A stretch of DNA of 15,654 nt. It comes from Desulfuromonadales bacterium (GTDB taxonomy: Bacteria > Desulfobacterota > Desulfuromonadia > Desulfuromonadales > BM103). The translations under genes and the position numbers were made by a program. The notes beneath the pieces are model-generated. The model saw only the letters and a list, made by a program, of their open reading frames with translations, was not told the DNA's origin and did not search any database. Shown here piece by piece: positions 5 to 13,834 of the stretch. Location: assembly GCA_030640215.1 (NCBI GenBank), contig DAOWJU010000261.1, positions 1 through 15,654 of the forward strand. The letters run 5' to 3'. Every line of letters starts with the position of its first letter. The first letter of the stretch is position 1.

Positions 5-1336
5 TTGGCACAGGAACCGCAACAACAGGATATTGACGCTAATATCACAGAACAGTTGAAAGATGTTAAACGGGTGAAAATCTTTTTCACTGACCTCAAT
101 GGGCGTCTGAAAAATCTGGATGTCAATCCAAACAATATCTTGGATATCATAAGTAACGGCGTCGGTATTGATGGCAGCTCCATCCCCGGCCTGGCGACGG
201 TCGATAACTCTGACCGCATCATGTTTCCGGTCGTTGAGAGTCTGCGTATTCTTGAGTTCTCGAATCGCAAGGTGGGCTTTTTCGTCGGCAAAGTCTACAA
301 CCAGTCTGGCGAGCGCTCAGAATGCGATCCCAGGGCGGTTTTGGAAGCAGTTCTGGAAAAGGCCGAAAAGGAATATGGGGTGCGTTTCATGGTCGGTCCC
401 GAGCATGAGTTCTTCCTGCTCAAAGGCGACGAATTTAACGATGACATCCATACTGATTCAGTCGGTTATTTCAGCAGTTCTCCAGGCAATAAAGGTGAAG
501 TGGTTCGCCATAAGATCGTTGATTTGCTGGGCAAGTGCGGCATCAACTACGAGAAGACCCACCACGAGGTCACCCCGTCACAGCACGAAATCAACCTCGA
601 ACCTGGCAACCCGTTGGAGATTGCCGACCGTACCCTGCTCTTTACCCACGTCGCCAAGGAAGTTGCCGCAGAGTACGGTATGCATGCAACCTTCATGTCC
701 AAGCCTTTCGATAAAATGAATCGTAATGCCTTCCATATCCACACCTCGATGACAGATCTTGAGGGCAACAACCTCTTCTACGATAGCAACGCAGAGCATC
801 AACTCAGCACCCAGATGCGTCACTTCATCGGCGGTATTCTCAAATACGCCCGTGAATCAACGATCATCTTTGCCTCGACACTGAACTCGTACAAGGCTTA
901 TATCATGGACCGCGAGGCGCCAATTATTCGCGGTTGGGGTCTGAAAAATCGCAGTTCAATGGTCCGCATCCCCCATGCTCTCAACCCCCAGGCAACCCGT
1001 CTCGAGTTACGCTGTCCAGATGCCACGGGCAATGTCTACCTGCAGATGGCAACCCTGATCGCCATGGGCCTGCAAGGACTTGAAGATAAACTTGATTGCG
1101 GCAGTCCCGATATCGGCAGCACATACAAGAAAACCAACACCAAACGTATGCATGATGACCGCTTTATCCCCCGGGATATCTTTGAGGCTTTGATGGAAGC
1201 GGAGAAAAGTGATTTTCTTAAAAACCTTCTGGGTGAGCCATTATTCAACAATTACCTAGGACTCAAGATGGATGACTGGGAAGAGCATCGTACGCGTGTT
1301 ACCCCACTTGAGCATCAGAAATACTTGTCAATCTGA
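5..1336 (+). CDS. Glutamine synthetase family protein (type I, atypical)
   Basis: Cytoplasmic ATP-dependent ligase of the GS-I fold, joining ammonium (or an amine) to a glutamate-type substrate. It is 443 residues long, the usual length of the short GS-I class. Family landmarks in order: GIDGSSIPG (56-57 carries the ammonium-site Asp), GPEHEFF (metal-binding Glu 133 and 135), HEV...QHE (Glu 188 and 195), HIH (His 244 and 246), NSYK (294-297), Glu 304, NRSSMVRIP (315-323), ELRCPD (334-339) and RVTPLEHQKYLSI at the C-terminus. Oddities seen by eye alignment to E. coli GlnA: NRNAFH replaces NGSGMH, and the Arg of NSYKRL (R321, glutamate binding) is Ala 298. The NLYDLP adenylylation segment is absent. 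It may therefore be a paralogue, for example a gamma-glutamyl ligase, rather than housekeeping GlnA. The start is TTG at 5. No ribosome site can be seen because the window begins there, and the frame is open upstream, so the true start may lie outside. Confidence 0.85.
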   Translation: MAQEPQQQDIDANITEQLKDVKRVKIFFTDLNGRLKNLDVNPNNILDIISNGVGIDGSSIPGLATVDNSDRIMFPVVESLRILEFSNRKVGFFVGKVYNQSGERSECDPRAVLEAVLEKAEKEYGVRFMVGPEHEFFLLKGDEFNDDIHTDSVGYFSSSPGNKGEVVRHKIVDLLGKCGINYEKTHHEVTPSQHEINLEPGNPLEIADRTLLFTHVAKEVAAEYGMHATFMSKPFDKMNRNAFHIHTSMTDLEGNNLFYDSNAEHQLSTQMRHFIGGILKYARESTIIFASTLNSYKAYIMDREAPIIRGWGLKNRSSMVRIPHALNPQATRLELRCPDATGNVYLQMATLIAMGLQGLEDKLDCGSPDIGSTYKKTNTKRMHDDRFIPRDIFEALMEAEKSDFLKNLLGEPLFNNYLGLKMDDWEEHRTRVTPLEHQKYLSI

Positions 1337-1539: not shown

Positions 1540-3330
1540 GTGTTCATGGGCATGAGACCATTCCCTCAAGTGAAAGAAGTCGTTTTGCGCAATAGCTTGC
1601 TTAAGTATTTTCCCCATTGGGTGTTGGTACTGTTGTTTTTTCTTGCGACAGTATCCGTTGCACTTGCTGAGGAACCCGATGATTTTGATGCTCCGATTAT
1701 CGTCGGTGGTGACCACAATTATCCCCCTTATGAGTTTATCGACGATGACGGTCAGTCTGCAGGTTTCAACGTAGAATTAACCCACGCGGTTGCCGATGTC
1801 ATGGGAATGGATGTAGAGATCAGGCTTGGTCCCTGGGGGCGTATGCGCCAAGGGTTGAGTTTGGGGGAGGTTGATGTTCTACAGGGGATGGCCTGGACCA
1901 GCGAACGGACTCAGGAGGTTGATTATTCCATACCACATGCCAAGGTGCATCAATCGATCTGGATCCGTAAAGGGTCGTCGATTGATTCCCTGGATGATTT
2001 AAACGGCAAGAACGTGATTGTCATGCGTGGTGCCGTTATGCATGACTTTATGCTGCAACATTCTGATTTGCATGCCAGACTGCATCCGGTACAGACACTT
2101 GAAGATGCTTTGAGGAAACTTTCTGAAGGGCTCTATGATGCGGCTCTGGTCGCTAAGCTGCCGGGAGAATATCTAGTTCAGAAAACCGGGTTGGTCAACA
2201 TCGCCCCCATTGCCAAGCCGTTGGTGGCACAAGATTACGGTTACGCGGTCAAGAAAGGCAATGCAGAACTGTTGGCCCGTTTCAACGAAGGTCTGATGTT
2301 GCTGAAAAAGTCAGGCCGCTTTCGTCTGATCTATGAAAAGTGGCTTGGAGTGTTACCTCAGCCGGGGATTTCGACTGATAAGATCGTTCGGGTTGGTGCC
2401 ATGGTTGTCTTGCCGTTACTCCTCGTTCTGGCAATGACAGTCTTCTGGTCGCGCACCTTAAGACGTCAAGTTGCGTTACGCACTGAGGCTCTGGAATTGG
2501 AGGTGATCAAGAAAGAGCAGGCCCTGTACGAATTGGAGGTTCACCAACAACAGCTGATCCAGGCGGATAAACTCTCTTCTCTTGGAATTCTGACCTCTGG
2601 TGTTGCCCACGAAATCAACAATCCCAATGGCTTGATTCTGCTGAACCTGCCGCTTCTCAAAAAAGCCTGGAATGATATGTCTCCAATACTACAGAAGCAT
2701 TTCCAGCAAAATGGAGATTTTAAACTCGGCTGGTTCAGCTTTTCGCGCATGAGCAACGAAATTCCACAGATGCTCGATGAAATGCAGCAGGGTGCCGAGC
2801 GAATCAAGAGAATCGTGGAGGATTTGAAGGACTTCACCCGCCAAAGTAGCGCCGAATTGAGCGAATCTGTCGATTTGAGTCTGGTCGCTGATACCGCACG
2901 ACGACTAGTCGATACTTCGCTGAAGAAGGCGACCCACCATTTCCAGGCAGATTTGGCTGGGAATCTACCGAAGTTTCGAGGCAATTCTCAGCGGATTGAG
3001 CAGGTGGTGGTCAACCTGCTACTTAATTCCTGTCAGGCCCTTGTTGATCGCGAGCAATCAATAGAATTACGCACGGCATTGGCTGAGGACGGGAGCCTTC
3101 TGCTTGAAGTCAAGGATCAGGGCTGTGGCATCGCCAGCGAGCATCTGCAGAAGTTGACCGACCCTTTCTTTACTACCAATCGTGATACAGGTGGAACGGG
3201 TCTTGGCCTTTCGATCTCAGAGGGAATTGTGAACGAGCATAGTGGCCAACTCAAATTCGATTCAGTGCCGGGTGAAGGGACTTGCGTCAGTTTACTGTTG
3301 CCGGCGGAGGATAAAACGCGTGAACGTTGA
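1540..3330 (+). CDS. Membrane sensor histidine kinase with periplasmic SBP_bac_3 domain
   Basis: Two-component sensor kinase, inner-membrane anchored. From the GTG at 1540 it has: signal/anchor segment about 20-43 ending in ALA|EE; a solute-binding family 3 domain about 50-270; a membrane helix about 283-304; a coiled-coil linker 305-345; the phosphoacceptor box GVAHEINNPNG with His 357; N-box around Asn 492/496; G1 DQGCG 526-530; F-box DPFFTT 541-546; G2 GGTGLGL 551-557. The H-box is of NtrB/AtoS type, fitting the sigma54 activator downstream, whose start overlaps this gene by 11 nt. In the sensor domain Arg 123 (TSERT) matches the alpha-carboxylate-binding Arg of amino-acid binding proteins. 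However, the Asp that binds the alpha-amino group (DAAFQD in HisJ) is Ala 205 (DAALVA). The start is uncertain: GTG 1540, ATG 1546 and ATG 1552 are all possible and none has a strong ribosome site. Confidence 0.93.
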   Translation: MFMGMRPFPQVKEVVLRNSLLKYFPHWVLVLLFFLATVSVALAEEPDDFDAPIIVGGDHNYPPYEFIDDDGQSAGFNVELTHAVADVMGMDVEIRLGPWGRMRQGLSLGEVDVLQGMAWTSERTQEVDYSIPHAKVHQSIWIRKGSSIDSLDDLNGKNVIVMRGAVMHDFMLQHSDLHARLHPVQTLEDALRKLSEGLYDAALVAKLPGEYLVQKTGLVNIAPIAKPLVAQDYGYAVKKGNAELLARFNEGLMLLKKSGRFRLIYEKWLGVLPQPGISTDKIVRVGAMVVLPLLLVLAMTVFWSRTLRRQVALRTEALELEVIKKEQALYELEVHQQQLIQADKLSSLGILTSGVAHEINNPNGLILLNLPLLKKAWNDMSPILQKHFQQNGDFKLGWFSFSRMSNEIPQMLDEMQQGAERIKRIVEDLKDFTRQSSAELSESVDLSLVADTARRLVDTSLKKATHHFQADLAGNLPKFRGNSQRIEQVVVNLLLNSCQALVDREQSIELRTALAEDGSLLLEVKDQGCGIASEHLQKLTDPFFTTNRDTGGTGLGLSISEGIVNEHSGQLKFDSVPGEGTCVSLLLPAEDKTRER

Positions 3331-4738
3331 TAAATACCCCAATTTTTCGATCCTCATCGTTGACGATGAGCCTTCCTGGTTACGCAGTTTGGGAATGACG
3401 CTTGAAGGCCCAGGAGGCTTTACTAACCTGTTGCAGACGAGTGTAAGCTGCGATGTTATGGGCTTACTGGAGCGACACGATGTTGGTGTGTTGTTGTTGG
3501 ACTTGAATATGCCGCACATCGGTGGGGAAGAACTGCTGGAGAGGGTCAATCGAGAATACCCGGAAATCATGGTGATTATTCTTTCAGGGATAAATCAATT
3601 GGAAATGGCCGTGGGTTGTATGCGCAAGGGAGCCTTCGATTATTTTGTCAAGACTGTCGAGGAGAACCGTCTTATTGGTGGGGTGCAGCGAGCAGTACGG
3701 ATGGTTGAACTGCAGCGTGAAAACCGTCAACTCAGTCGCCACATGTTGAAGTGTGAACTTGAGCACCCTGAAGTTTTTGACAAGATAGTGACGCGTAATC
3801 CGAAGATGCAAGCGGTTTTTTCCTATCTCGAGTCAATCGTCGGTTCTCGTCATCCCGTACTCATCCTGGGTGAGAGCGGTGTTGGTAAAGAACTAATTGC
3901 TCATGGCATTCACCAGCTTGAAAAGAATGATGGTTTGCTCGTCAGCATCAATGTTGCCGGCCTTGATGACAATGCTTTTGCTGATACCCTCTTTGGCCAT
4001 CAGAAAGGCGCTTTTACAGGTGCGGAGAGAGCGCGCAGTGGCTTGATAGAACAAGCCGCTGGTGGGACTCTCTTTCTCGATGAAATTGGTGATCTGTCTC
4101 TTGCAAGCCAGGTCAAGCTACTGCGCCTGTTGCAGGAAGGAGAATATTACCGCCTTGGTAGTGATACCCCCAGCCAATTGCGTGCACGAATAGTCTGCGC
4201 TACCCACAAAAACTTGAACGAAGCTGTCGCACAGGGGACCTTTCGCAAAGACCTTTATTATCGCCTGAATACTCACATGGTTAGACTTCCGCCATTAAGA
4301 GAACGTCGTGAGGATCTCCCTCTGCTGCTTGAGTATTTTCTTGAAACTTCGGCTGAAGAACTTGAAAAGCCAGTTCCGACCCCACCGCGCGAATTGGCTG
4401 CACTTCTCCATAGCTACAGTTTTCCCGGTAATTTACGTGAGTTAAAGATGATGGTGCATGATGCAGTCAGTCGGCATAGTGGTGGAGTTCTTTCGATGTC
4501 TCCCTTTATTGAGCGAATCGGAGAAGCTCGCGAGCAACTGGTACCAGTTGCGGACAACCCTTTTATTGCTATGCGTGAACTGCCGACCATAAGTGCTGCC
4601 ACAGAATTATTAGTCGACGCCGCCCTCGGTCGCGCAGCTGATAATCAGTCCTTGGCAGCTCGTCTGTTGGGGGTCTCGCAACCAGCATTGAGTAAACGTC
4701 TTAAGCAACGTCGCCAAACTGATGATAAAGGGGTATAG
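3320..4738 (+). CDS. Sigma54-dependent response regulator (NtrC/AtoC type)
   Basis: Transcription activator that uses ATP to open sigma54-RNA polymerase promoters when phosphorylated by the adjacent kinase. With start GTG 3320 (GGAGG at 3306-3310, 9-nt spacing) it has 472 residues. Receiver domain 8-125: acidic pair DDE 15-17, phosphoacceptor Asp 61, Ser 89, Lys 111. AAA+ domain about 155-385: Walker A GESGVGKE 184-191, the sigma54-contact loop GAFTGA 230-235, Walker B LFLDEIG 251-257, arginine region FRKDLYYRLN 308-317, FPGNLREL 368-375. A Fis-type helix-turn-helix lies at about 443-464 (SLAARLLGVSQPALSKRLKQ). Starting at the ATG-frame codon at 3242 would put 26 extra residues inside the kinase gene and lacks the ribosome site. 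The 11-nt overlap with the kinase stop implies translational coupling. The most obvious target is the sigma54 promoter at 4916-4931. Confidence 0.95.
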   Translation: MNVDKYPNFSILIVDDEPSWLRSLGMTLEGPGGFTNLLQTSVSCDVMGLLERHDVGVLLLDLNMPHIGGEELLERVNREYPEIMVIILSGINQLEMAVGCMRKGAFDYFVKTVEENRLIGGVQRAVRMVELQRENRQLSRHMLKCELEHPEVFDKIVTRNPKMQAVFSYLESIVGSRHPVLILGESGVGKELIAHGIHQLEKNDGLLVSINVAGLDDNAFADTLFGHQKGAFTGAERARSGLIEQAAGGTLFLDEIGDLSLASQVKLLRLLQEGEYYRLGSDTPSQLRARIVCATHKNLNEAVAQGTFRKDLYYRLNTHMVRLPPLRERREDLPLLLEYFLETSAEELEKPVPTPPRELAALLHSYSFPGNLRELKMMVHDAVSRHSGGVLSMSPFIERIGEAREQLVPVADNPFIAMRELPTISAATELLVDAALGRAADNQSLAARLLGVSQPALSKRLKQRRQTDDKGV

Positions 4739-4748
4739 CCTCGGTTAT
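4727..4748 (+). promoter_or_regulatory. Candidate activator site, distal copy of inverted 22-bp motif
   Basis: AAAGGGGTATA followed by 5 nt and GGTTAT. The reverse complement of this arrangement recurs at 4824-4845, matching at 18 of 22 positions. The copy overlaps the last codons of the response-regulator gene and lies about 200 bp upstream of the predicted transcription start of the GDH gene. That is a normal distance for an enhancer of a sigma54 activator. A perfect 16-bp palindrome (4743-4758, GGTTATAATTATAACC) extends from it. The role is inferred. Confidence 0.5.
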
Positions 4749-4823
4749 AATTATAACCAGAACCCTCTTCGTCATTTACTCCCAATACCTATCTAGTTTT
4801 TGTCCAATCGCACCTCTATTGCC

Positions 4824-4845
4824 ATAACCAGAGTTATACCCCTTT
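4824..4845 (-). promoter_or_regulatory. Candidate activator site, proximal copy of inverted 22-bp motif
   Basis: Reverse-complement copy of the motif at 4727-4748: ATAACC, 5 nt, TATACCCCTTT on the plus strand. Its centre is 97 bp from that of the distal copy and about 100 bp upstream of the predicted +1 of the GDH gene. It is likely bound by the Fis-type HTH of the neighbouring regulator, by inference from position and repetition only. Confidence 0.5.
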
Positions 4846-4915
4846 GCCCTCTCTGCTTTTTTGGGCTTGTGCCGAAAAACCATTAGAAACAGCAGTATAC
4901 GTAAATTTATTGGTC

Positions 4916-4931
4916 TGGCATGTTGATTGCT
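4916..4931 (+). promoter_or_regulatory. Sigma54 (-24/-12) promoter of the glutamate dehydrogenase gene
   Basis: TGGCATGTTGATTGCT matches the sigma54 consensus TGGCAYR-N4-TTGCW at every specified position. GG is at 4917-4918 and GC at 4929-4930, with the required spacing. The expected start is near 4941, giving a leader of about 90 nt before the ATG at 5030. It sits directly downstream of a sigma54 activator gene and of two candidate enhancer sites. Confidence 0.85.
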
Positions 4932-5029
4932 ACAACATTGTTTTAGAGAAACGCCGCTAAGCAATTCCACACCACAAAGGTTCTGCAAGCAAAGAGCCGG
5001 ATTGTGACGAGACCGGGCAAAGGAAACTG

Positions 5030-8000
5030 ATGAACGAAATGGCCGTCGACAACCGAACCTTGCAGAAGATTCGCCGCACTGTGATCGATGAACTGGGCCG
5101 CACGACTGACAATCTGGAATGGTTGCGCGAACAAATGCACCCCTATTTCTTTATCACCATGAAGAAAGAAACAGAGGCCGTTGCCGAATTAGCTCGCGGC
5201 CTTGGCTGGCTACGCAAAAATAGGCGCAGGATACTGGCGGAAACGGACCGTAAGCTGATTCTGGCCTGCCTGTCAGAACCGGACTCGCTCTACAGCACAA
5301 TGAGTCATCTTCAGGAGCGGGAGATCTCTTACGCACACATTGCTCGATCTTTTTCTTCTGTCCCTGGCACGGAGAAACGACTCGAAATACAGCGCTACGA
5401 ATTTGATCGCAAAAGCCCCGAAGAGGTGCGCGAGACTGGTGATGTCAACATCCCTCAGCGTATTCGTAAGAGTATAGTTGCAGAATTAAGGCGCTACTAT
5501 CCAGAATTCAATTTTACCGAGCTCGACAACTTGTTGCGTATTCTCTGGATCAACAACGAAAACTATGTGCGCATTTCGCCACCAAAGAGGGTCGCCCAGA
5601 TCCTCTGGCTCTACCAGCAGGGCATATTACATGACGGGGTTTTTCTCGCCGCAGAAGAGACTGATGGAGAGGATCAGCAACGGGAAACGCGGCTGATGTT
5701 CGCCGTCGGCAATCCTCCGCAGAAAGATTTCCTGCAACAGACTCTTGAGGTTCTCAAACGCCTCGGACTACAAACTAGGCGTGCCTACTGCCTGACAATC
5801 AACAACGGTATTCACCCCTACTTCCTCTCCACATTTTATGTGCGGACCGTGGATGACAAGCTCCTTGAACCGGACTCAGCGCAGTTCCGCACTCTGCAGA
5901 AAGAGCTCTTCAACACCCAGATTCTGGGTACCGAAACCGAAGCTTATCGCGAATTCGTAACCAACGGCATCATGACTGGCGAGGAAGCAGCTCTGACCAA
6001 TGCCTTTATTGCCTTTTGTCATACCAATCTCGCGCACAACAATCAGCCGCGCTACGATCTGGAGGGGGTATCACGCGCATTCCATTCCCACCCCGATATC
6101 ACTCTGCAATTGATTAAACTTTTCCGGCTGCGTTTCGACCCTGATCTCAAGTTTGATCCGACCCTGTATCACGACGCCCTGATCGAGACTGAGAAGACCC
6201 TCGCCAGCTACAATACCGGGCGTCGCTCCCTGGACGAGTTCAGACGAACAATCTTCCAGTGTTGTGTTTCGTTCATCCGCCACACTCTGAAAACTAATTT
6301 CTTTGTCCTGGAGAAGCATGCCCTTGCTTTTCGTATTGACCCGGCTTATCTCGCTGATTTTGATGAGCGCTTTACTTCAGGGCTGCCTGCTGAAAGACCG
6401 TTCCGCATCACCTTCTTTTTCTGTCGCAATGGCAGCGGCTACCATATTGGCTTTTCAGATATCGCCCGTGGCGGCTGGCGCACCATTTTAACTCGCAACC
6501 GTGACGAGTATGTCACCACCGCAAACACTCTGTTCCGCGAAGTTTACGTGCTTTCCCATACCCAACACCTGAAAAACAAAGATATCTATGAAGGTGGTTC
6601 CAAAATGGGCGTTGTGTTGCGCGCAGGGCGCGAAGATGATCAGGAAAAAATGAAACGTCGCCTGTACAAGTTGCAGTATGGCATCTTCAACGCTTTCCTC
6701 GACATTTTTGTGACAGAGGACGGCAAGGCACTTAACCCCAGGGTCATCGACCACTATGGTGAGGATGAGCCGATTGAGCTCGGCCCCGACGAGAACATGC
6801 ATGACGAGATGATCGAATTGATCGCTCGCCAGTCTGAGCGTCGTAATTACCTGCTCGGTTCCGGTGTCATCTCAAGCAAGCAGGTCGGTATCAACCACAA
6901 AGAGTATGGTGTCACATCTACTGGTGTGGTCAAATTTGCCGAGATTACCATGGAGTCCCTCGGCATAGACATGCACAAGGATCCCTTTTCGCTGAAACTG
7001 ACCGGCGGTCCCAATGGCGATGTTGCTGGCAACGCTCTGCGGTTGCTGTTGCAACGCTGCCCGAAAATGCAGGTCAAACTGATTGTCGATGGCAGCGGGG
7101 CACTCTACGACCCACTTGGTGCAAACCATGAGGCGCTTGACAAAGTCGTTCTGAAAAGTGACATCGACGCATTCGATCCCGTGGCGTTGAACCCCGGAGG
7201 ATTCATTCTCTATCGCAATCAACAGCAGAGTGAAGGTTTGCGCAAACTTTACCGTAAACTCAGCCGTGAGAACGGTGACGTCAAAGAAGAGTGGGTTTCT
7301 GCAGATGAATTCTTTAGTGAATACGGCCGCTTGGTCCTCAACGTCGACGCCGATTTGTTCATCCCTGCTGGTGGCCGCCCGGAGACAATCGACAACAGCA
7401 ACTGGCCGCGTTTTCTGGACAAAAATGAGACCCCAACTGCCCGCGCTATTATTGAAGGAGCCAACTCCTTCCTGACTCCCATTGCACGGGTTGAACTGCA
7501 GAAGCGCGGCGTTGTTATCATGCGTGATGCCTCCGCCAATAAGTGCGGAGTGATTTCGTCATCCTACGAAATCATTGCTAACCTGCTGCTCTCAGATAAG
7601 GAGTTTCTGAACAGCAAGGAACGTTACGTGGCAGACGTCATCGACATTCTCGAGCGTCGGGCCCAGGACGAAGCCCGGCTGATCCTGCGTAGGTACGATG
7701 AACAAGGGGGAAACAAACTCTACACTGAAATCTCGGACGAGATCAGCAGGGAGATCAACAGTCACTATGCACATCTCTTTACCTTCTTTCAGAAGCACTC
7801 CCACCTCTGCGGGAAGCCACTCTTCCGACGCGCCATCCTGGCTCATCTGCCTAAGATGCTGCGCACAGAGGAACGCTATCGTCGTCGTCTTAAGCTTTTG
7901 CCGGAAAAGTACCTGTTTGCCATTCTTGCCAGTGAGATAGCATCTTCAATGGTTTACCGTGAAAACCGCGAAGCGGATTTTCTCGGCGTACTGCAAGGAC

Positions 8001-8047
8001 ATTTGCAGCGTAGATTTGGAGAACACATTGAACGAAAAGTTGCCTAA
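5030..8047 (+). CDS. NAD-dependent glutamate dehydrogenase, large (115-kDa-like) type
   Basis: Cytoplasmic catabolic enzyme: glutamate + NAD+ to 2-oxoglutarate + ammonium + NADH. It has 1005 residues. The first ~400 are a family-specific N-terminal region without motifs I can name. The catalytic core follows: RGGWR 480-484, EGGSKM 521-526 (counterpart of the GGGKGG lysine loop), GPDENM 585-590, GVTSTGVV 627-634, then the nucleotide-binding segment TGGPNGDVAGN 658-668, DLFIPAGG 775-782, IEGANSFLT 808-816 and DASANKCGVISSSYEI 833-848. The last motif is close to the one in fungal GDH2. The size fits the 115-kDa class rather than the ~1600-residue bacterial GDH180. ATG 5030 is supported by AAAGGA at 5021-5026; an in-frame ATG at 5039 is less well placed. 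It has its own sigma54 promoter and candidate enhancers, so expression is probably switched by the upstream sensor pair. No strong terminator follows, so readthrough into the transporter genes is possible. Confidence 0.93.
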   Translation: MNEMAVDNRTLQKIRRTVIDELGRTTDNLEWLREQMHPYFFITMKKETEAVAELARGLGWLRKNRRRILAETDRKLILACLSEPDSLYSTMSHLQEREISYAHIARSFSSVPGTEKRLEIQRYEFDRKSPEEVRETGDVNIPQRIRKSIVAELRRYYPEFNFTELDNLLRILWINNENYVRISPPKRVAQILWLYQQGILHDGVFLAAEETDGEDQQRETRLMFAVGNPPQKDFLQQTLEVLKRLGLQTRRAYCLTINNGIHPYFLSTFYVRTVDDKLLEPDSAQFRTLQKELFNTQILGTETEAYREFVTNGIMTGEEAALTNAFIAFCHTNLAHNNQPRYDLEGVSRAFHSHPDITLQLIKLFRLRFDPDLKFDPTLYHDALIETEKTLASYNTGRRSLDEFRRTIFQCCVSFIRHTLKTNFFVLEKHALAFRIDPAYLADFDERFTSGLPAERPFRITFFFCRNGSGYHIGFSDIARGGWRTILTRNRDEYVTTANTLFREVYVLSHTQHLKNKDIYEGGSKMGVVLRAGREDDQEKMKRRLYKLQYGIFNAFLDIFVTEDGKALNPRVIDHYGEDEPIELGPDENMHDEMIELIARQSERRNYLLGSGVISSKQVGINHKEYGVTSTGVVKFAEITMESLGIDMHKDPFSLKLTGGPNGDVAGNALRLLLQRCPKMQVKLIVDGSGALYDPLGANHEALDKVVLKSDIDAFDPVALNPGGFILYRNQQQSEGLRKLYRKLSRENGDVKEEWVSADEFFSEYGRLVLNVDADLFIPAGGRPETIDNSNWPRFLDKNETPTARAIIEGANSFLTPIARVELQKRGVVIMRDASANKCGVISSSYEIIANLLLSDKEFLNSKERYVADVIDILERRAQDEARLILRRYDEQGGNKLYTEISDEISREINSHYAHLFTFFQKHSHLCGKPLFRRAILAHLPKMLRTEERYRRRLKLLPEKYLFAILASEIASSMVYRENREADFLGVLQGHLQRRFGEHIERKVA

Positions 8048-8114
8048 AGCTTGCAAAATGTTCAATTGACGATAAAAATATAGATTGTTGTAGCTGTTAG
8101 CTCTTTCGGCGCTT

Positions 8115-8152
8115 GGTCGCTCGCGACCTGCATTGTAACAGGCCTCTTGGCC
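8115..8152 (+). repeat. Two short GC-rich inverted repeats ahead of the TAXI receptor gene
   Basis: GGTCGC-TC-GCGACC at 8115-8128 and GGCC-TCTT-GGCC at 8141-8152 lie in the 152-nt gap between the GDH gene and the receptor gene. A third one, CCGGC-N8-GCCGG, follows at 8163-8180. They could be operators or mRNA hairpins. None is followed by a T-run, so they are not intrinsic terminators. No known riboswitch fold was recognised. Confidence 0.4.
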
Positions 8153-8163
8153 AATAACCTGCC
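8148..8163 (+). promoter_or_regulatory. Weak sigma54-like promoter candidate for the transporter
   Basis: TGGCCAATAACCTGCC keeps TGGC and TGC at the correct -24/-12 spacing but deviates at four specified positions (C and A after TGGC, C before TGC, final C). A start near 8174 would leave a 26-nt leader containing the ribosome site. It would put the transporter under the same regulator as GDH, but the match is much poorer than at 4916-4931 and no copy of the enhancer motif is nearby. Confidence 0.3.
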
Positions 8164-8199
8164 CGGCTTGGGCTTGCCGGTAACTAAAGGAGAATGTGT

Positions 8200-9162
8200 A
8201 TGAAGAGATTTGCAGCAGTATTAATGGCGGCCGTTTTTGTGTGCATCGGTGTCGCAGATGCTTTCGCTACCCAGTATGTTACGATCGGTACTGGTGGTGT
8301 AACCGGTGTTTACTACCCTACGGGTGGTGCGATCTGTCGTCTGGTGAATAAAACCAGGAAAGAGCATGGTATCCGTTGTTCTGTCGAGAGTACCGGTGGT
8401 TCGGTTTACAACCTGAATACCATTCGTGCTGGTGAGCTCGATATGGGCGTTGCTCAATCCGACTGGCAATATCATGCCTACAACGGCACCAGCAAGTTTA
8501 AAGATCAGGGTGCCAATAAGGATCTGCGTGCAGTATTTTCAGTTCATCCCGAGCCCTTCACCGTTGTTGCCCGTAAAGATTCCGGTGTCACGGATTTCAT
8601 GCAGCTGAAAGGCAAGCGCGTTAATATCGGCAACCCCGGTTCTGGTCAGCGCGGGACAATGGAAGTACTCATGGGTGCTTTGGGTTGGACCAAAGCTGAT
8701 TTCAAACTGGCCTCAGAATTGAAATCTTCCGAGCAGTCGAAAGCCCTGTGTGACAATAAAATTGACGCCATAGTCTTCACCGTTGGTCATCCAAGTGGTT
8801 CTATTAAAGAAGCCACCACCTCTTGTGATTCAGTGATGGTCAGCGTGACTGGCCCTGCAGTCGACAAGCTGGTTGCAGACAACGATTACTATCGTACAGC
8901 AACCATCCCGGGCGGCATGTATCGTGGTACCGATGCAGACACCCAGACCTTTGGTGTAGGTGCAACATTTGTTTCTTCAGCCAACGTTCCTGAAGAAGTC
9001 ATCTACCAGGTCGTCAAGGCGGTCTTCGAGAATTTTGACGATTTCAAAAAGCTTCACCCTGCATTTGCTAACCTGGACCCAAAAGAAATGATTAAGGACG
9101 GCCTTTCTGCTCCTCTGCACAAAGGTGCTCTCAAGTACTACAAAGAAGTAGGTTGGATGTAA
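8200..9162 (+). CDS. TAXI family TRAP transporter solute-binding protein
   Basis: Periplasmic receptor that captures a substrate and delivers it to the fused TRAP permease encoded next. It has 320 residues from ATG 8200. Residues 1-23 form a signal peptide ending AFA|TQ. The mature N-terminus [18 protein letters not shown] (26-43), the segment [27 protein letters not shown] (62-88) and [16 protein letters not shown] are characteristic of the TAXI receptor family. AAGGAG at 8187-8192 lies 7 nt from ATG 8200. The ATG at 8194 would leave almost no spacing and is rejected. Characterised TAXI receptors bind glutamate/glutamine (Thermus) or 2-oxoglutarate (Proteus), and the neighbouring GDH makes such a substrate likely here. 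That is inferred, not read from residues. The strong terminator after the gene should make this component more abundant than the permease. Confidence 0.95.
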
Positions 9163-9181
9163 TTTTAATGATGGTATGCTG

Positions 9182-9213
9182 AAAAAATGCACCGTTACGG
9201 CGGTGCATTTTTT
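9182..9213 (+). terminator. Intrinsic terminator between receptor and permease genes
   Basis: A perfect 13-bp stem (9182-9194 with 9201-9213) has a 6-nt loop; its 3' arm ends in six T and its 5' arm begins with six A, so it could act on both strands. It lies 20 nt after the receptor stop and 40 nt before the permease start. No new promoter is evident in between, so the permease is probably expressed by partial readthrough. Confidence 0.9.
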
Positions 9214-9253
9214 CTCTGTCAATTGCTATTCGTTACGCTAAAAGGTTCTTGCC

Positions 9254-11839: not shown

Positions 11840-11861
11840 TCACTTTGATCGGTGAAAACCT

Positions 11862-11902
11862 ACCTGCATGCCTTTAGAGTGATATGCTTGAGGTATGCAG
11901 GT
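11862..11902 (+). repeat. Inverted repeat between permease and Usp genes
   Basis: A 12-bp stem with one G-U pair (ACCTGCATGCCT at 11862-11873 with 11891-11902) encloses a 17-nt loop. It is not followed by a T-run and lies 22 nt after the permease stop. It may be an RNA processing or stability element that sets the relative level of permease and Usp, or an operator. Confidence 0.45.
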
Positions 11903-11939
11903 GATTTACTTAACGGGTTGATGGCGAGAGGAGGCTACT

Positions 11940-12434
11940 GTGAGTATTAAACTTGAAAAGATTCTGGTTGCTAAAGATTTGAGCAAAGAATCTTCTAACG
12001 TTGTTCGCTATGCTTTGGAGTTGGGCCGTAGGTTTAGTGCACAGGTTTATGTGCTGCACGTCATGCCGACGGTCGACGCATCAGTGTTGAATATGGTGGC
12101 CCTGACCATGGGGGCGGATAAACTGGCAAAATTCAATGCGCAAAACGAAGCAGAGTTGGCTGAAAAAACGCGTGAGCAGTTGCATAACATCATTGCGAAA
12201 GAAACGGAACTGATGAAGGAGGAAATCGTTCACCCTCCAAAGGTTGAGGTTCATCACGGTGACGCGGCACCGGTGATACTCAGCGTTGCTGATCGTCTGG
12301 ATGTCGATATGATTATTCTCGGCAGTCACAGCAAGGGTAAGCTGCATTACGCATTTTTAGGCAGTGCGGCAGAAAAGATTTTGCGCAAGACGCATCGGAC
12401 TGTTGTTATTGTCCCTCCTGTGAGTGGCAGTTAG
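11940..12434 (+). CDS. Universal stress protein (Usp), TRAP-associated
   Basis: Small cytoplasmic UspA-fold protein, 164 residues, starting at GTG 11940 with GAGAGGAGG just upstream (11927-11935). It has the beta-alpha opening EKILVAKDLS with Asp 13 and a C-terminal GSHSKGKLHYAFLGSAAEKIL (128-148). The ATP motif of the family is G-2x-G-9x-G-S/T. Here Gly 128 and Gly 141-Ser 142 are present but the second Gly is Ser 131, so nucleotide binding may be altered. It is collinear with the second Usp at 13220-13708, with Asp 13 and Gly 128/141 in the same positions. In Halomonas the Usp TeaD is encoded with, and regulates, the TRAP transporter TeaABC. The position here suggests a similar role, which is inferred. 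Confidence 0.9.
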   Translation: MSIKLEKILVAKDLSKESSNVVRYALELGRRFSAQVYVLHVMPTVDASVLNMVALTMGADKLAKFNAQNEAELAEKTREQLHNIIAKETELMKEEIVHPPKVEVHHGDAAPVILSVADRLDVDMIILGSHSKGKLHYAFLGSAAEKILRKTHRTVVIVPPVSGS

Positions 12435-12459
12435 TTTACGAAAAATATGATTGTGAGAG

Positions 12460-12494
12460 AACCCGCCCTCAGTTACTATTGAGGGTGGGTTTTT
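12460..12494 (+). terminator. Intrinsic terminator after the first Usp gene
   Basis: A 12-bp stem with one G-U pair (12460-12471 with 12480-12491) has an 8-nt loop, and its 3' arm runs into five T (12490-12494). It ends the transporter transcription unit 25 nt after the Usp stop. Confidence 0.9.
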
Positions 12495-12550
12495 CGTCTG
12501 AACCTGTTATTTACTATTTATTTAACCTAAGTATAAGGACGTATCGTTTT

Positions 12551-13189
12551 GTGAACTATGACAGTTGGTTACTTTTTACGTCGATTGCACTCGTAGCCAC
12601 GATTACTCCGGGACCGGCGATACTGCTTGTGTCAACCCACAGTGTTACCTTTGGCACAAAGTATTCTGTTGCCACCATGGTTGGCAACGTGACCGGGCTG
12701 TTCATTTTATCGTTGCTTTCCGTTATGGGGCTGAGTGCAATCATTCTCCATTCTGCGTCGATATTTTTCGCAGTGAAGCTAATCGGAGCCTGCTACTTGA
12801 TTTTTTTGGGCTTAAAACTCTGGAGGAATGGTTTTGGCCTCGAGGCGATCCAGACTGTCGAAAACGACGATGTGCGGCAACAACCTAACATTGTGAAGCT
12901 TTATGCCAATGGTCTGTTGGTGGCTCTCAGCAATCCCAAGGCAATCGCCTTTACAACTGCGCTGTTTCCGCAGTTTATCCAGCCTGATCGGTCGATGATA
13001 CAGCAGTTCAGTATCCTGATTGTTACCTTCATGTTTCTGTCGTTTATCTGTCTGTTTAGCTATGCAATCATGGCCGAGGGAACGAAAAAGCGTTCAGCGC
13101 AAATTAAATTGCCCGGTATTATGAGCAAAGTGTTCGGTTGTGCATTTATTGGCTCGGGAGTTTTTCTTGCAACTGCAACTCAGAAATAA
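12551..13189 (+). CDS. LysE/RhtB family amino-acid exporter
   Basis: Inner-membrane efflux protein of 212 residues, the normal size for LysE/RhtB transporters. Hydrophobic helices open with WLLFTSIALVATITPGPAILL, carrying the family signature around PGPA. Next come VATMVGNVTGLFILSLLSVMG and the stretch AVKLIGACYLIFLGLKLW, a polar loop (about 98-122), and three more helices including NPKAIAFTTALFPQF. Start GTG 12551 is preferred: AAGGA lies at 12535-12539 and the protein then begins MNYDSWLLF. The longer frame from 12479 would start inside the terminator. The substrate cannot be read from sequence. Next to GDH, GS-like and amino-acid uptake genes, it may relieve amino-acid overload. It is followed closely by the second Usp, probably in one transcript. 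Confidence 0.88.
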   Translation: MNYDSWLLFTSIALVATITPGPAILLVSTHSVTFGTKYSVATMVGNVTGLFILSLLSVMGLSAIILHSASIFFAVKLIGACYLIFLGLKLWRNGFGLEAIQTVENDDVRQQPNIVKLYANGLLVALSNPKAIAFTTALFPQFIQPDRSMIQQFSILIVTFMFLSFICLFSYAIMAEGTKKRSAQIKLPGIMSKVFGCAFIGSGVFLATATQK

Positions 13190-13219
13190 TCAACCACAAC
13201 CCAGAATTGAGGTGTACTT

Positions 13220-13708
13220 ATGATCGCACACTACAAAACCATCCTATATGCAACTGATTTAACTGAAAATGCCGCCCACGCATTTAAACATGCAATTTCT
13301 CTGGGCAAAGCATATAAGGCTCAAATTCACATTCTTCACATGATGCAGGAAATGGATGCAGCTGTTGTCAGTTATGTGGCAAGCGTTATGGGAGAAGATC
13401 GGTTTACTGGTATGGAGCTGGATCACGAGAAAGAAATGCATGAGCAAATAAGTGAAAAACTTAACCTCTTTGCTGCAGAAGAATTGACTGAGTATCCTGA
13501 TGAACTGGCAAGAATAGCTTCCGTTGCTGTTCATCGTGGCAATCCGGTAGCTGGCATCCTTGCTGAGGCAGACCGTCTCTCTGCTGATATGATCGTTATG
13601 GGGACACACGGCAAAGGGCCGTTGCGTTACGCTTTTCTCGGCAGTGTTGCCGAGAAGGTGTTGCGTAAAACTCACCGGCCGGTCCTGATTGTGCCTCTGG
13701 GGGATTGA
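13220..13708 (+). CDS. Universal stress protein (Usp) with intact ATP motif
   Basis: UspA-fold cytoplasmic protein of 162 residues, ATG 13220 with GAGG at 13209-13212. It opens YKTILYATDLTENA with Asp 13 and ends GTHGKGPLRYAFLGSVAEKVLRKTHRPVLIVP. Here the G-2x-G-9x-G-S nucleotide motif is complete: Gly 128, Gly 131, Gly 141, Ser 142. It is a paralogue of the Usp at 11940-12434, with which it aligns without visible gaps through residue 160. It therefore looks like a duplication, with the LysE-type gene lying between the two copies. The 30-nt gap to the exporter gene suggests co-transcription. Confidence 0.92.
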   Translation: MIAHYKTILYATDLTENAAHAFKHAISLGKAYKAQIHILHMMQEMDAAVVSYVASVMGEDRFTGMELDHEKEMHEQISEKLNLFAAEELTEYPDELARIASVAVHRGNPVAGILAEADRLSADMIVMGTHGKGPLRYAFLGSVAEKVLRKTHRPVLIVPLGD

Positions 13709-13791: not shown

Positions 13792-13834
13792 GCCCCGCAG
13801 TCACCCCCCCCCCCCTGACTGTGGGGCTTTTTTT
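13792..13834 (+). terminator. Intrinsic terminator with a C12 loop
   Basis: A 12-bp stem with one G-U pair (13792-13803 with 13816-13827) is followed by seven T (13828-13834). The loop consists only of 12 consecutive C (13804-13815). It closes the LysE/Usp unit. Confidence 0.9.

What the first reader, a model, noticed from the sequence alone, without database searches (positions are those of the whole stretch)
1540..8047. Self-contained extracellular-ligand to sigma54 to glutamate dehydrogenase switch
A kinase with a periplasmic binding domain and a sigma54 activator sit directly upstream of a -24/-12 promoter that matches consensus at every specified position and drives a catabolic NAD-GDH. 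Two copies of a 22-bp motif lie at enhancer distance. Together they form a complete one-locus circuit for turning on glutamate deamination in response to something outside the cell. I know of no well-described system with this exact layout.
Basis: partly seen in the sequence, partly recalled or inferred. Interest (0 to 1): 0.85.

Follow-up and report, generated by a model that had tools for sequence, protein, structure and literature searches.

The report
Glutamate-sensing switch for uptake and breakdown
This stretch of a bacterial genome carries a membrane sensor, its partner regulator and a matching on-switch in the DNA, which together most likely turn on glutamate uptake and breakdown when glutamate is outside the cell; relatives share the switch, and here it has been wired to the breakdown enzyme first.

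Summary
Window 1540-4738 encodes a kinase with a periplasmic binding domain and a sigma54 response regulator. Between the regulator and a large glutamate dehydrogenase (GDH) lie a -24/-12 element (4915-4931, 12 of 13 consensus positions) and palindromes ATAAC-N4-GTTAT at 4735-4748 and 4824-4837, plus a decayed copy at 4753-4766. Of 40 loci of the order with TAXI or GDH close behind the regulator, 36 keep a -24/-12 element and 37 the palindrome (shuffle means 0.98 and 0.63).

The interpretation needs widening. The usual order in relatives is kinase-regulator-TAXI-TRAP transporter-Usp, with GDH last or absent. The transporter's binding protein keeps the glutamate pocket of VcGluP. In the window and its nearest relative GDH stands first, and the window's operon parts have three different nearest kin. 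Among 20 class-level loci examined, one more (G149) has GDH first. Related pairs precede ABC, DctA, DcuB and other operons, and the kinase tree splits by substrate class in one step. Best reading: a glutamate-responsive, locally acting sigma54 switch of the DctBD/AauSR kind, carried as a portable cassette. Ligand and promoter use are inferred, not shown.

The parts
1540..3330 (+). Sensor histidine kinase: N-terminal membrane segment, periplasmic SBP_bac_3 (Venus flytrap) domain, second membrane segment (segments read by eye), HisKA, HATPase_c
   Evidence: Pfam; catalytic motifs; closest solved structure 3h7m
3326..4738 (+). Sigma54 response regulator (receiver, AAA+ with GAFTGA, C-terminal HTH); overlaps the kinase stop codon
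   Evidence: Pfam; motifs; start at the GTG at 3326 is my choice
4735..4748 (+). UAS site A, ATAGCCTCGGTTAT (1 mismatch to ATAAC-N4-GTTAT); overlaps the regulator's stop codon
4753..4766 (+). UAS site B, 18 bp after A: left half ATAAC kept, right half decayed
   Evidence: 18 bp is the commonest site spacing in the 40 loci (16 pairs, sites with up to 2 mismatches)
4824..4837 (+). UAS site C, ATAACCAGAGTTAT (exact)
4915..4931 (+). -24/-12 (sigma54) promoter element CTGGCATGTTGATTGCT; start of transcription expected near 4941
   Evidence: unchanged 17 of 17 in the nearest relative
5030..8047 (+). Large glutamate dehydrogenase (1005 aa, NAD-GDH family), first gene of the presumed operon
8194..9162 (+). 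TAXI-type TRAP solute-binding protein, predicted glutamate binder
   Evidence: TIGR02122; 8S4J (VcGluP) E 8.7e-135; pocket residues
9254..11839 (+). Fused TRAP permease (861 aa, with DUF3394)
11940..12434 (+). Universal stress protein (Usp)
12479..13189 (+). LysE-type exporter
13220..13708 (+). Second universal stress protein
13813..13826 (+). Terminator-like hairpin with T run, presumed end of the operon
   Evidence: consensus match only; 19 terminator-like sites found, shuffle mean 13.4

Best explanation
A self-contained, locally acting two-component sigma54 switch for glutamate. The membrane kinase's periplasmic flytrap domain reports external glutamate, or a close dicarboxylate. The kinase phosphorylates the adjacent response regulator. 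The regulator binds palindromes ATAAC-N4-GTTAT about 110 and 200 bp upstream of the start and activates sigma54 RNA polymerase at the -24/-12 element 4915-4931. This switches on one operon: GDH, a TAXI-TRAP glutamate importer, two stress proteins and a LysE-type exporter. Imported glutamate is deaminated to 2-oxoglutarate, NADH and ammonium. Shown from sequence and comparison: the parts, the conserved promoter and UAS, the kinase-regulator-transporter linkage, and the glutamate-type pocket of the transporter's binding protein. Inferred: phosphotransfer, DNA binding, the start site, operon extent, the kinase's ligand, and the catabolic direction and NAD use of GDH.
For: Cis-elements: of 54 usable loci, 40 have TAXI or GDH within 420 nt of the regulator (the window and its nearest relative included). 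Of these 40, 36 have a -24/-12 match of at least 10 of 13 (shuffle mean 0.98, max 3) and 14 at least 12 of 13 (mean 0.01); 37 have a UAS with at most 1 mismatch (mean 0.63, max 3) and 26 an exact one (mean 0.04). The spacer is 4 nt in 40 of 44 exact dyads, spacers 2-8 tried. Window against its nearest relative G012: 2 changes in 55 positions (sites A and C, first 10 nt of B, the 17-nt promoter) against 39 in 241 others. Linkage: 41 of 60 fetched order-level loci have TAXI downstream of the regulator (in L168 6.4 kb away); 8 others are cut by a contig end. Glutamate: the two VcGluP residues whose loss cuts glutamate affinity most (Y45, Q93; PMC11574862) are kept in 41 of 41 operon TAXI proteins, the window's included, as are S75, H123 and E125; VcGluP binds glutamate with Kd 0.065 uM. 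Sensor: kinases next to glutamate-type targets (TAXI, Glt-type ABC, GDH with either) and those next to C4-dicarboxylate carriers (DctA, DcuB, DctQM) are separated by one change on the tree (55 labelled rows). The first group has M162 and K/R206 in 47 of 47; the second has S118 in 8 of 8 and neither M162 nor K/R206. Host: rpoN present. Precedent: in Geobacter sulfurreducens dcuB has a primer-extension-verified RpoN promoter and a GDH gene (GSU1305) was RpoN-dependent on arrays (PMC2725144 passages).
Against: No expression, footprint or binding data. The Asp that binds the alpha-amino group in amino-acid SBPs is Ala at residue 205 (0 of 61 kinases have Asp), so glutamate may not be bound in the usual way, if at all. 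The VFT of HK29 is reported closed and unliganded (PMC4352136). The tree split could be shared ancestry rather than ligand, and the three DcuB-rotamase-GDH kinases have mixed residues (S118, L162, K206). The ABC transporter that I call Glt-type is below the NCBIfam cut-offs; its binding protein's second-best solved relative is named glutamate-binding (5eyf). 14 of 54 loci have no TAXI/GDH within 420 nt, and 8 of these 14 show neither promoter nor palindrome. In G010, of the window's own genus, a regulator end (54% over 104 aa) is followed by a -24/-12 element, aspartase, a DcuB-like carrier and GDH, without the palindrome. PMC2725144 reads its RpoN-dependent GDH as ammonia-assimilating, not catabolic. 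S40 of VcGluP is Gly and M201 is Thr here. Sigma70-like matches at 9249 and 12424 overlap the starts of TRAP and LysE, though such matches are no more frequent than in shuffles.
Confidence: 0.75

Rival explanations
1. Same circuit, but the kinase senses a dicarboxylate such as 2-oxoglutarate, succinate or fumarate (or aspartate) rather than glutamate; glutamate genes are switched on as part of a C4/C5-acid response.
For: The carboxylate-binding Arg is kept in 60 of 61 kinases while the amine-binding Asp is absent in all 61. Sister kinase-regulator pairs sit before DctA, DcuB, DctQM and aspartase, and in G010 a related regulator end precedes aspartase-DcuB-GDH.
Against: Kinases next to TAXI-TRAP, Glt-type ABC and GDH share pocket residues and tree position distinct from the DctA/DcuB/DctQM ones. 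The common denominator of their targets is glutamate.
Confidence: 0.25
2. The sensor domain does not bind a free ligand; it is a locked flytrap that reads the state of the TAXI binding protein or TRAP transporter (co-sensing), so that transport flux is the signal.
For: HK29's domain is reported closed and unliganded (PMC4352136). The kinase gene lies near the transporter genes in 41 of 60 fetched loci.
Against: Pocket residues are strongly conserved: Arg123 60, Trp99 61, Tyr61 57 and Asp58 54 of 61. The transporter family changes (TRAP, ABC) while these kinases stay on one side of the tree, which argues against one specific partner.
Confidence: 0.15
3. The inverted repeats act as RNA (leader hairpin or attenuator) or as a terminator of the regulator gene, and GDH has its own housekeeping promoter.
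For: The two 22-bp copies are inverted and could pair; a sigma70-like match with TATAAT ends at 4751 and a weak terminator-like match lies at 4730-4742.
Against: No Rfam match. The repeats lie upstream of the expected start. Each copy is itself a palindrome, kept with a 4-nt spacer and a common 18-bp spacing across divergent loci. Sigma70-like sites are no more frequent than in shuffles (10 against 12.4).
Confidence: 0.05
4. The GDH-first arrangement is an assembly artefact.
For: The host genome is a draft in 347 contigs, 83% complete; 14 linked relatives have GDH after TRAP; the parts have different nearest kin.
Against: The relative G012 has the same junctions: regulator-promoter-GDH start at the end of one contig (L126) and GDH-TAXI-TRAP on two others (L199, L200).
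Confidence: 0.03

Closest known systems
AauS-AauR / aatJQMP of Pseudomonas (PMC7962211, passages read)
   Same: Sigma54 two-component activator for glutamate/aspartate uptake; two motifs of the 5-N4-5 palindrome form upstream of a -24/-12 element; nearby target operon
   Different: UAS TTCGG-N4-CCGAA there, ATAAC-N4-GTTAT here; target there an ABC transporter, here TAXI-TRAP plus a large GDH; sensor domain here SBP_bac_3
DctB-DctD (and MifSR), DctD driving DctA and the DctPQM TRAP transporter (PMC7962211, passages)
   Same: Kinase with periplasmic sensor plus sigma54 regulator switching on a TRAP importer
   Different: C4/C5 dicarboxylates; DctP-type TRAP and no SBP_bac_3 flytrap sensor (both recalled); no GDH
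Flytrap kinase of PDB 3h7m (that it is HK29 of Geobacter sulfurreducens is recalled) and the RpoN-dependent dcuB promoter (PMC2725144, passages)
   Same: 3h7m is the closest solved sensor (E 1.3e-67). DcuB-linked family members have the same plan: kinase-regulator-UAS-(-24/-12)-dcuB (L183, L218)
   Different: Target is a C4-dicarboxylate carrier; pocket residues 118, 162 and 206 differ in L183 and L218; whether this kinase sits beside dcuB in G. sulfurreducens was not checked
VcGluP (VC0430) TAXI-TRAP of Vibrio cholerae (PMC11574862, passages; PDB 8S4J)
   Same: Glutamate-binding TAXI protein; main binding residues identical
   Different: In the passages read it lies downstream of argR and mdh; no kinase, sigma54 regulator or GDH is mentioned there
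EBP genes co-localised with their operons in Desulfovibrionales (PMC4641369, one passage) and EBP regulons for amino-acid catabolism in Clostridiales (PMC6615313, passages)
   Same: EBP gene beside a sigma54-driven operon with an AT-rich palindrome; amino-acid catabolism under EBPs
   Different: Other target pathways; this kinase-regulator pair was not looked for in those groups

Membership tests
Sigma54-dependent two-component system (DctBD/AauSR kind) | Kinase with periplasmic sensor, HisKA and ATPase domains | tested here: met
Sigma54-dependent two-component system (DctBD/AauSR kind) | Response regulator with receiver, GAFTGA AAA+ domain and HTH | tested here: met
   HTH read in the alignment, no HTH model hit
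Sigma54-dependent two-component system (DctBD/AauSR kind) | -24/-12 promoter and palindromic UAS upstream of the target | tested here: met
   (sequence and conservation, not function)
Sigma54-dependent two-component system (DctBD/AauSR kind) | rpoN in the host | tested here: met
Sigma54-dependent two-component system (DctBD/AauSR kind) | Activation requires regulator and RpoN | not testable with these tools
   needs reporter or transcript data
AauSR proper | UAS TTCGG-N4-CCGAA upstream of the target | tested here: not met
   one 1-mismatch site in the window, at 5922 inside GDH; 0.65 expected by chance
AauSR proper | AauS-type sensor domain | tested here: inconclusive
   the kinase's only Pfam sensor domain is SBP_bac_3; AauS itself was not scanned
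Glutamate-type TAXI-TRAP | TRAP_TAXI model and fused TRAP permease | tested here: met
   TIGR02122 and TIGR02123 over cut-off
Glutamate-type TAXI-TRAP | Y45 and Q93 of VcGluP | tested here: met
   Y40 and Q88 here; 41 of 41 operon TAXI proteins
Glutamate-type TAXI-TRAP | Binds glutamate | not testable with these tools
   binding assay needed
Large NAD-dependent glutamate dehydrogenase | Bac_GDH_CD and ELFV domains, about 1000 aa | tested here: met
   homologs named NAD-glutamate dehydrogenase, e.g. P0004, P0102
Large NAD-dependent glutamate dehydrogenase | Uses NAD and runs in the deaminating direction | not testable with these tools
   family name and operon context only
HK29/BvgS-like flytrap kinases | SBP_bac_3 sensor closest to 3h7m among solved structures | tested here: met
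   the identity of 3h7m with HK29 is recalled
HK29/BvgS-like flytrap kinases | Flytrap closed without ligand | not tested
   reported for HK29 in PMC4352136; no structure modelled here

The most novel reading that the evidence does not exclude
Kinase, regulator, UAS and -24/-12 promoter form one portable 'sense-and-switch' cassette of this bacterial class. The UAS can begin at the regulator's stop codon, so the promoter travels with the regulator and can be plugged in front of whichever uptake or catabolic operon matches the sensor's ligand: TAXI-TRAP with or without GDH, GDH then an ABC transporter, ABC alone, DctA, DcuB, DctQM, aspartase, GlnH-type ABC, glycine reductase. Three pocket positions of the sensor (118, 162, 206) would form a readable ligand code. 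In the window the cassette (Geothermobacter-like), the GDH and the TAXI-TRAP genes come from three different lineages, a re-plugging that put the degrading enzyme first.
Probability: 0.5. Interest if true: 0.6.

Novelty: new variant of a known kind. Interest (0 to 1): 0.48.

Why it matters
It gives a testable regulatory rule for a large bacterial class: a defined DNA motif, a defined promoter and a sensor family whose neighbouring genes suggest its ligand. It links a TAXI-TRAP importer and a large GDH to a sigma54 two-component switch; no paper on such a link stood out in the listings of the searches made. The substrate split on the kinase tree could let ligands of many uncharacterised flytrap kinases be predicted. 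It also gives an untested lead on which activator drives RpoN-dependent dcuB in Geobacter.

Tried and rejected
RNA element: no Rfam match, and the repeats are palindromes upstream of the expected start; rejected. Regulon in trans: 20 regions were scanned, but two (L199, L200) are G012 contigs cut inside GDH, so 18 are upstream regions of GDH genes not found beside the kinase. 0 of 18 have a UAS with at most 1 mismatch; 4 of 18 (L191, L193, L196, L197) have a -24/-12 scoring at least 11 somewhere in up to 3.7 kb. One of them (L197, G010) turned out to be linked to a regulator end after all. Single UAS sites in the host are no more frequent than in the reversed control (72 against 95), so the doublet was used. 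AauR-type UAS: not found upstream of GDH. GDH-only circuit: rejected, TAXI-TRAP is the usual target. Assembly chimera: rejected by G012. A second sigma54 promoter between GDH and TAXI: none seen by eye in 8047-8194; the only other window site with up to 2 mismatches is at 9897. Structure prediction, fold search and viral scans were not used.

Rows dropped before counts: of 61 order-level kinase loci (60 fetched plus the window), 6 with under 250 nt after the regulator and L141 with a truncated regulator were left out, giving 54; 14 of these without TAXI/GDH within 420 nt were left out of the 40; L126 was put into the 40 by hand because its sequence runs into the GDH start. L176 and L185 (long branches) were left out of the second kinase tree. 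The 3 DcuB-rotamase-GDH rows, the aspartase row and the unknown or cut rows were in neither class of the one-change count. The 20 class-level loci were chosen from 153 genomes with a match, mainly from complete or long contigs. The 60 order-level regions leave out the window's own and a few partial or lower-ranked matches. Labels: models were run on one example each of GlnH, DcuB, aspartase, glycine reductase C-beta, DctM, DcuB-rotamase and DctA and on ABC parts of L207 and L222; the other class loci were labelled by eye and confirmed by BLAST to these (79-100%); GlnPQ, DctQ, the NhaC-like gene and the asparaginase were named by eye.

Full report
What is in the window. The window is one whole contig (C257) of a draft genome of 2.71 Mb in 347 contigs, 83% complete. 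In order it encodes a glutamine-synthetase-like enzyme, the kinase, the sigma54 regulator, a 1005-aa glutamate dehydrogenase, a TAXI binding protein, a fused TRAP permease, Usp, LysE and a second Usp; a gene with pyridine-nucleotide oxidoreductase domains lies on the other strand. A terminator-like hairpin with a T run follows the second Usp (13813), and none of the plus-strand terminator-like matches lies in the gaps between GDH and that Usp. Two sigma70-like matches overlap the TRAP and LysE starts, but such matches are not more frequent than in shuffles. The genes from 5030 to 13708 look like one operon; this is inference.

The cis-elements. The -24/-12 element at 4915-4931 matches 12 of 13 consensus positions. 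Site A (4735-4748) overlaps the regulator's stop codon. Site B (4753-4766) begins 18 bp later and has lost its right half. Site C (4824-4837) is exact. The expected start is about 4941, so sites A and C lie roughly 200 and 110 bp upstream, a usual enhancer distance.

Conservation. Kinase orthologs (E up to 1e-100) are found in 62 of 136 genomes of the order. Sixty regions around them were fetched. In 41 of the 60 TAXI lies downstream of the regulator, usually followed by TRAP and Usp; 8 more are cut by a contig end, one (L126) runs into GDH, one (L174) has TAXI-TRAP upstream of the kinase, and 9 have other or no recognised targets. Of 54 loci with at least 250 nt after the regulator, 40 have TAXI or GDH within 420 nt. 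In these 40, 36 have a -24/-12 element scoring at least 10 of 13 (shuffle mean 0.98); 37 have a palindrome with at most one mismatch (0.63); 26 have an exact one (0.04). Of the other 14, 8 show neither. The rows are related, so these ratios are not probabilities; but the kinases of the 40 range from about 53 to 92% identity to the window's, and against the closest relative only 2 of 55 element positions changed while 39 of 241 others did. The spacer is 4 nt in 40 of 44 exact dyads.

GDH is an add-on. GDH homologs (E up to 1e-100) are in 39 of 136 genomes, 31 of which also have the kinase. In 15 of these, counted by hand, both lie on one contig within 20 kb. In 14 of the 15 GDH comes after the TRAP genes; in the window it comes before TAXI. 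The near relative G012 has the window's order spread over contigs: regulator and promoter run into the first GDH codons at a contig end (L126), and GDH-TAXI-TRAP stands on two others (L199, L200). Outside the order, G149 (L222) has kinase-regulator-two palindromes 18 bp apart-(-24/-12)-GDH-ABC genes. A further case in the window's genus, G010, has a related regulator's end, a 12-of-13 -24/-12 element 236 nt behind it, aspartase, a DcuB-like carrier and GDH, without the palindrome. Of 18 regions upstream of GDH genes not found beside the kinase, none has the palindrome.

A mosaic operon. On the kinase tree the window groups with Geothermobacter-like sequences (8 rows, starred). On the permease tree it falls in the other deep group, with L134, L137 and L143 of another family. 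On the GDH tree it groups with P0004 and a GDH of G106; all 12 operon-end GDHs in that tree fall in a different starred group (FastTree). The kinase-regulator block, the GDH and the transporter thus have different nearest kin. G012's fragments were not in the permease and GDH trees.

What the transporter carries. The TAXI protein is closest to 8S4J, which is VcGluP, with Kd 0.065 uM for glutamate (PMC11574862, passages). Y45, S75, Q93, H123 and E125 are kept in 41 of 41 operon TAXI proteins; Y200 is Y or F; M201 is T or V; S40 is G. Glutamate is the likely cargo.

What the kinase senses. The sensor domain is closest to 3h7m. The Arg that binds the carboxylate in amino-acid SBPs is kept in 60 of 61 kinases; the Asp that binds the amino group is absent in all 61 (role of these residues recalled). 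Around the class, related kinase-regulator pairs precede ABC genes that I call Glt-type, DctA, DcuB, a DcuB with an inserted rotamase domain followed by GDH, DctQM, aspartase, a GlnH-type ABC gene and glycine reductase genes. The Glt-type label is moderate: NCBIfam scores are below cut-off, but the binding protein's second-best solved relative is named glutamate-binding (5eyf, E 1.4e-47) and in G149 the genes follow GDH. In 7 of the 20 class loci the nearest target was not recognised; in L213 and L217 a DctA and in L219 a DcuB lies some kilobases further on. UAS with at most 1 mismatch appear in 8 of the 20, -24/-12 scores of at least 10 in 8 of 20; in the DcuB-rotamase loci neither was found within 450 nt. 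Grouped by target, glutamate-type rows have M162 and K/R206 in 47 of 47; dicarboxylate-type rows (8) have S118 and neither M162 nor K/R206; the three DcuB-rotamase-GDH rows are mixed. On the tree the two classes are separated by a single change. Two unrelated importers (TRAP and ABC) share one side, which points to the ligand as the common factor; shared ancestry alone could also explain it.

Known systems. AauSR drives glutamate uptake through RpoN, with two motifs resembling TTCGG-N4-CCGAA (PMC7962211 passages); that motif is not upstream of GDH here. DctD drives a TRAP transporter (same paper). In G. sulfurreducens the dcuB promoter was verified as RpoN-dependent by primer extension and a GDH (GSU1305) was RpoN-dependent on arrays, read there as assimilatory (PMC2725144 passages). 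A G. sulfurreducens NAD-GDH 62% identical to the window's exists (P0102); that it is GSU1305 was not checked. In Desulfovibrionales EBP genes are co-localised with operons that have conserved sigma54 promoters and an AT-rich palindrome (PMC4641369, one passage). No paper describing this cassette stood out in the listings of searches of an open-access library, which lacks most subscription journals; passages of seven papers were read, none in full.

Verdict. A real, conserved, locally acting sigma54 switch, most likely for glutamate uptake and breakdown. The general plan is known; the sensor type, DNA motif, TAXI-TRAP/GDH target and re-plugged layout make it a new variant.

Noticed in passing
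L232 (G010 contig C80) 2-6564: In the window's genus: end of a related regulator, -24/-12 element, aspartase-like gene, DcuB-like carrier, large GDH, without the ATAAC-N4-GTTAT palindrome.
   Followed up: partly
L126 (G012), about 6142-7638 in kinase orientation: The regulator gene of the window's closest relative is split into two ORFs (111 and 351 aligned residues, 94-95% identical to the window's), a frameshift or a sequence error in that draft genome.
   Followed up: no
L199 and L200 (G012 contigs C9 and C11): Two contigs of one genome carry GDH-TAXI-TRAP ends; in L200 a 425-aa ORF that reads like an aminotransferase/cysteine-desulfurase relative lies between TAXI and TRAP. Either a duplication or mixed strains.
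   Followed up: partly
L208:4271-5908: A DcuB-type C4-dicarboxylate carrier with a PPIC rotamase domain inserted in its middle, followed directly by the large GDH (also L210, L212).
   Followed up: partly
L147, L227, L234, L235: A different sigma54-activator-like gene (34-35% identical to the window's regulator) lies next to the large GDH in several genomes.
   Followed up: no
L183 and L218, after the regulator gene: In the dcuB-linked members the palindrome has a 5-nt spacer (ATAAC-N5-GTTAT) instead of 4.
   Followed up: partly
L216, L224, L226: DctA-linked regulators of the same family have the same palindrome (18-19 bp doublets); genomes with several paralogous pairs may show cross-talk between glutamate and dicarboxylate switches.
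   Followed up: no
window 5-1336; L161:1103-2425: A glutamine-synthetase-like gene precedes the kinase in the window and in L161. The window's scores 352 bits against the GlnA model's cut-off of 429, so it may be a GS-like ligase rather than housekeeping GlnA.
   Followed up: no
L185 downstream of the regulator: A member of the same kinase-regulator family stands before a thioredoxin reductase-like gene and glycine/sarcosine/betaine reductase genes, with a -24/-12 element scoring 12 of 13 at +266.
   Followed up: partly
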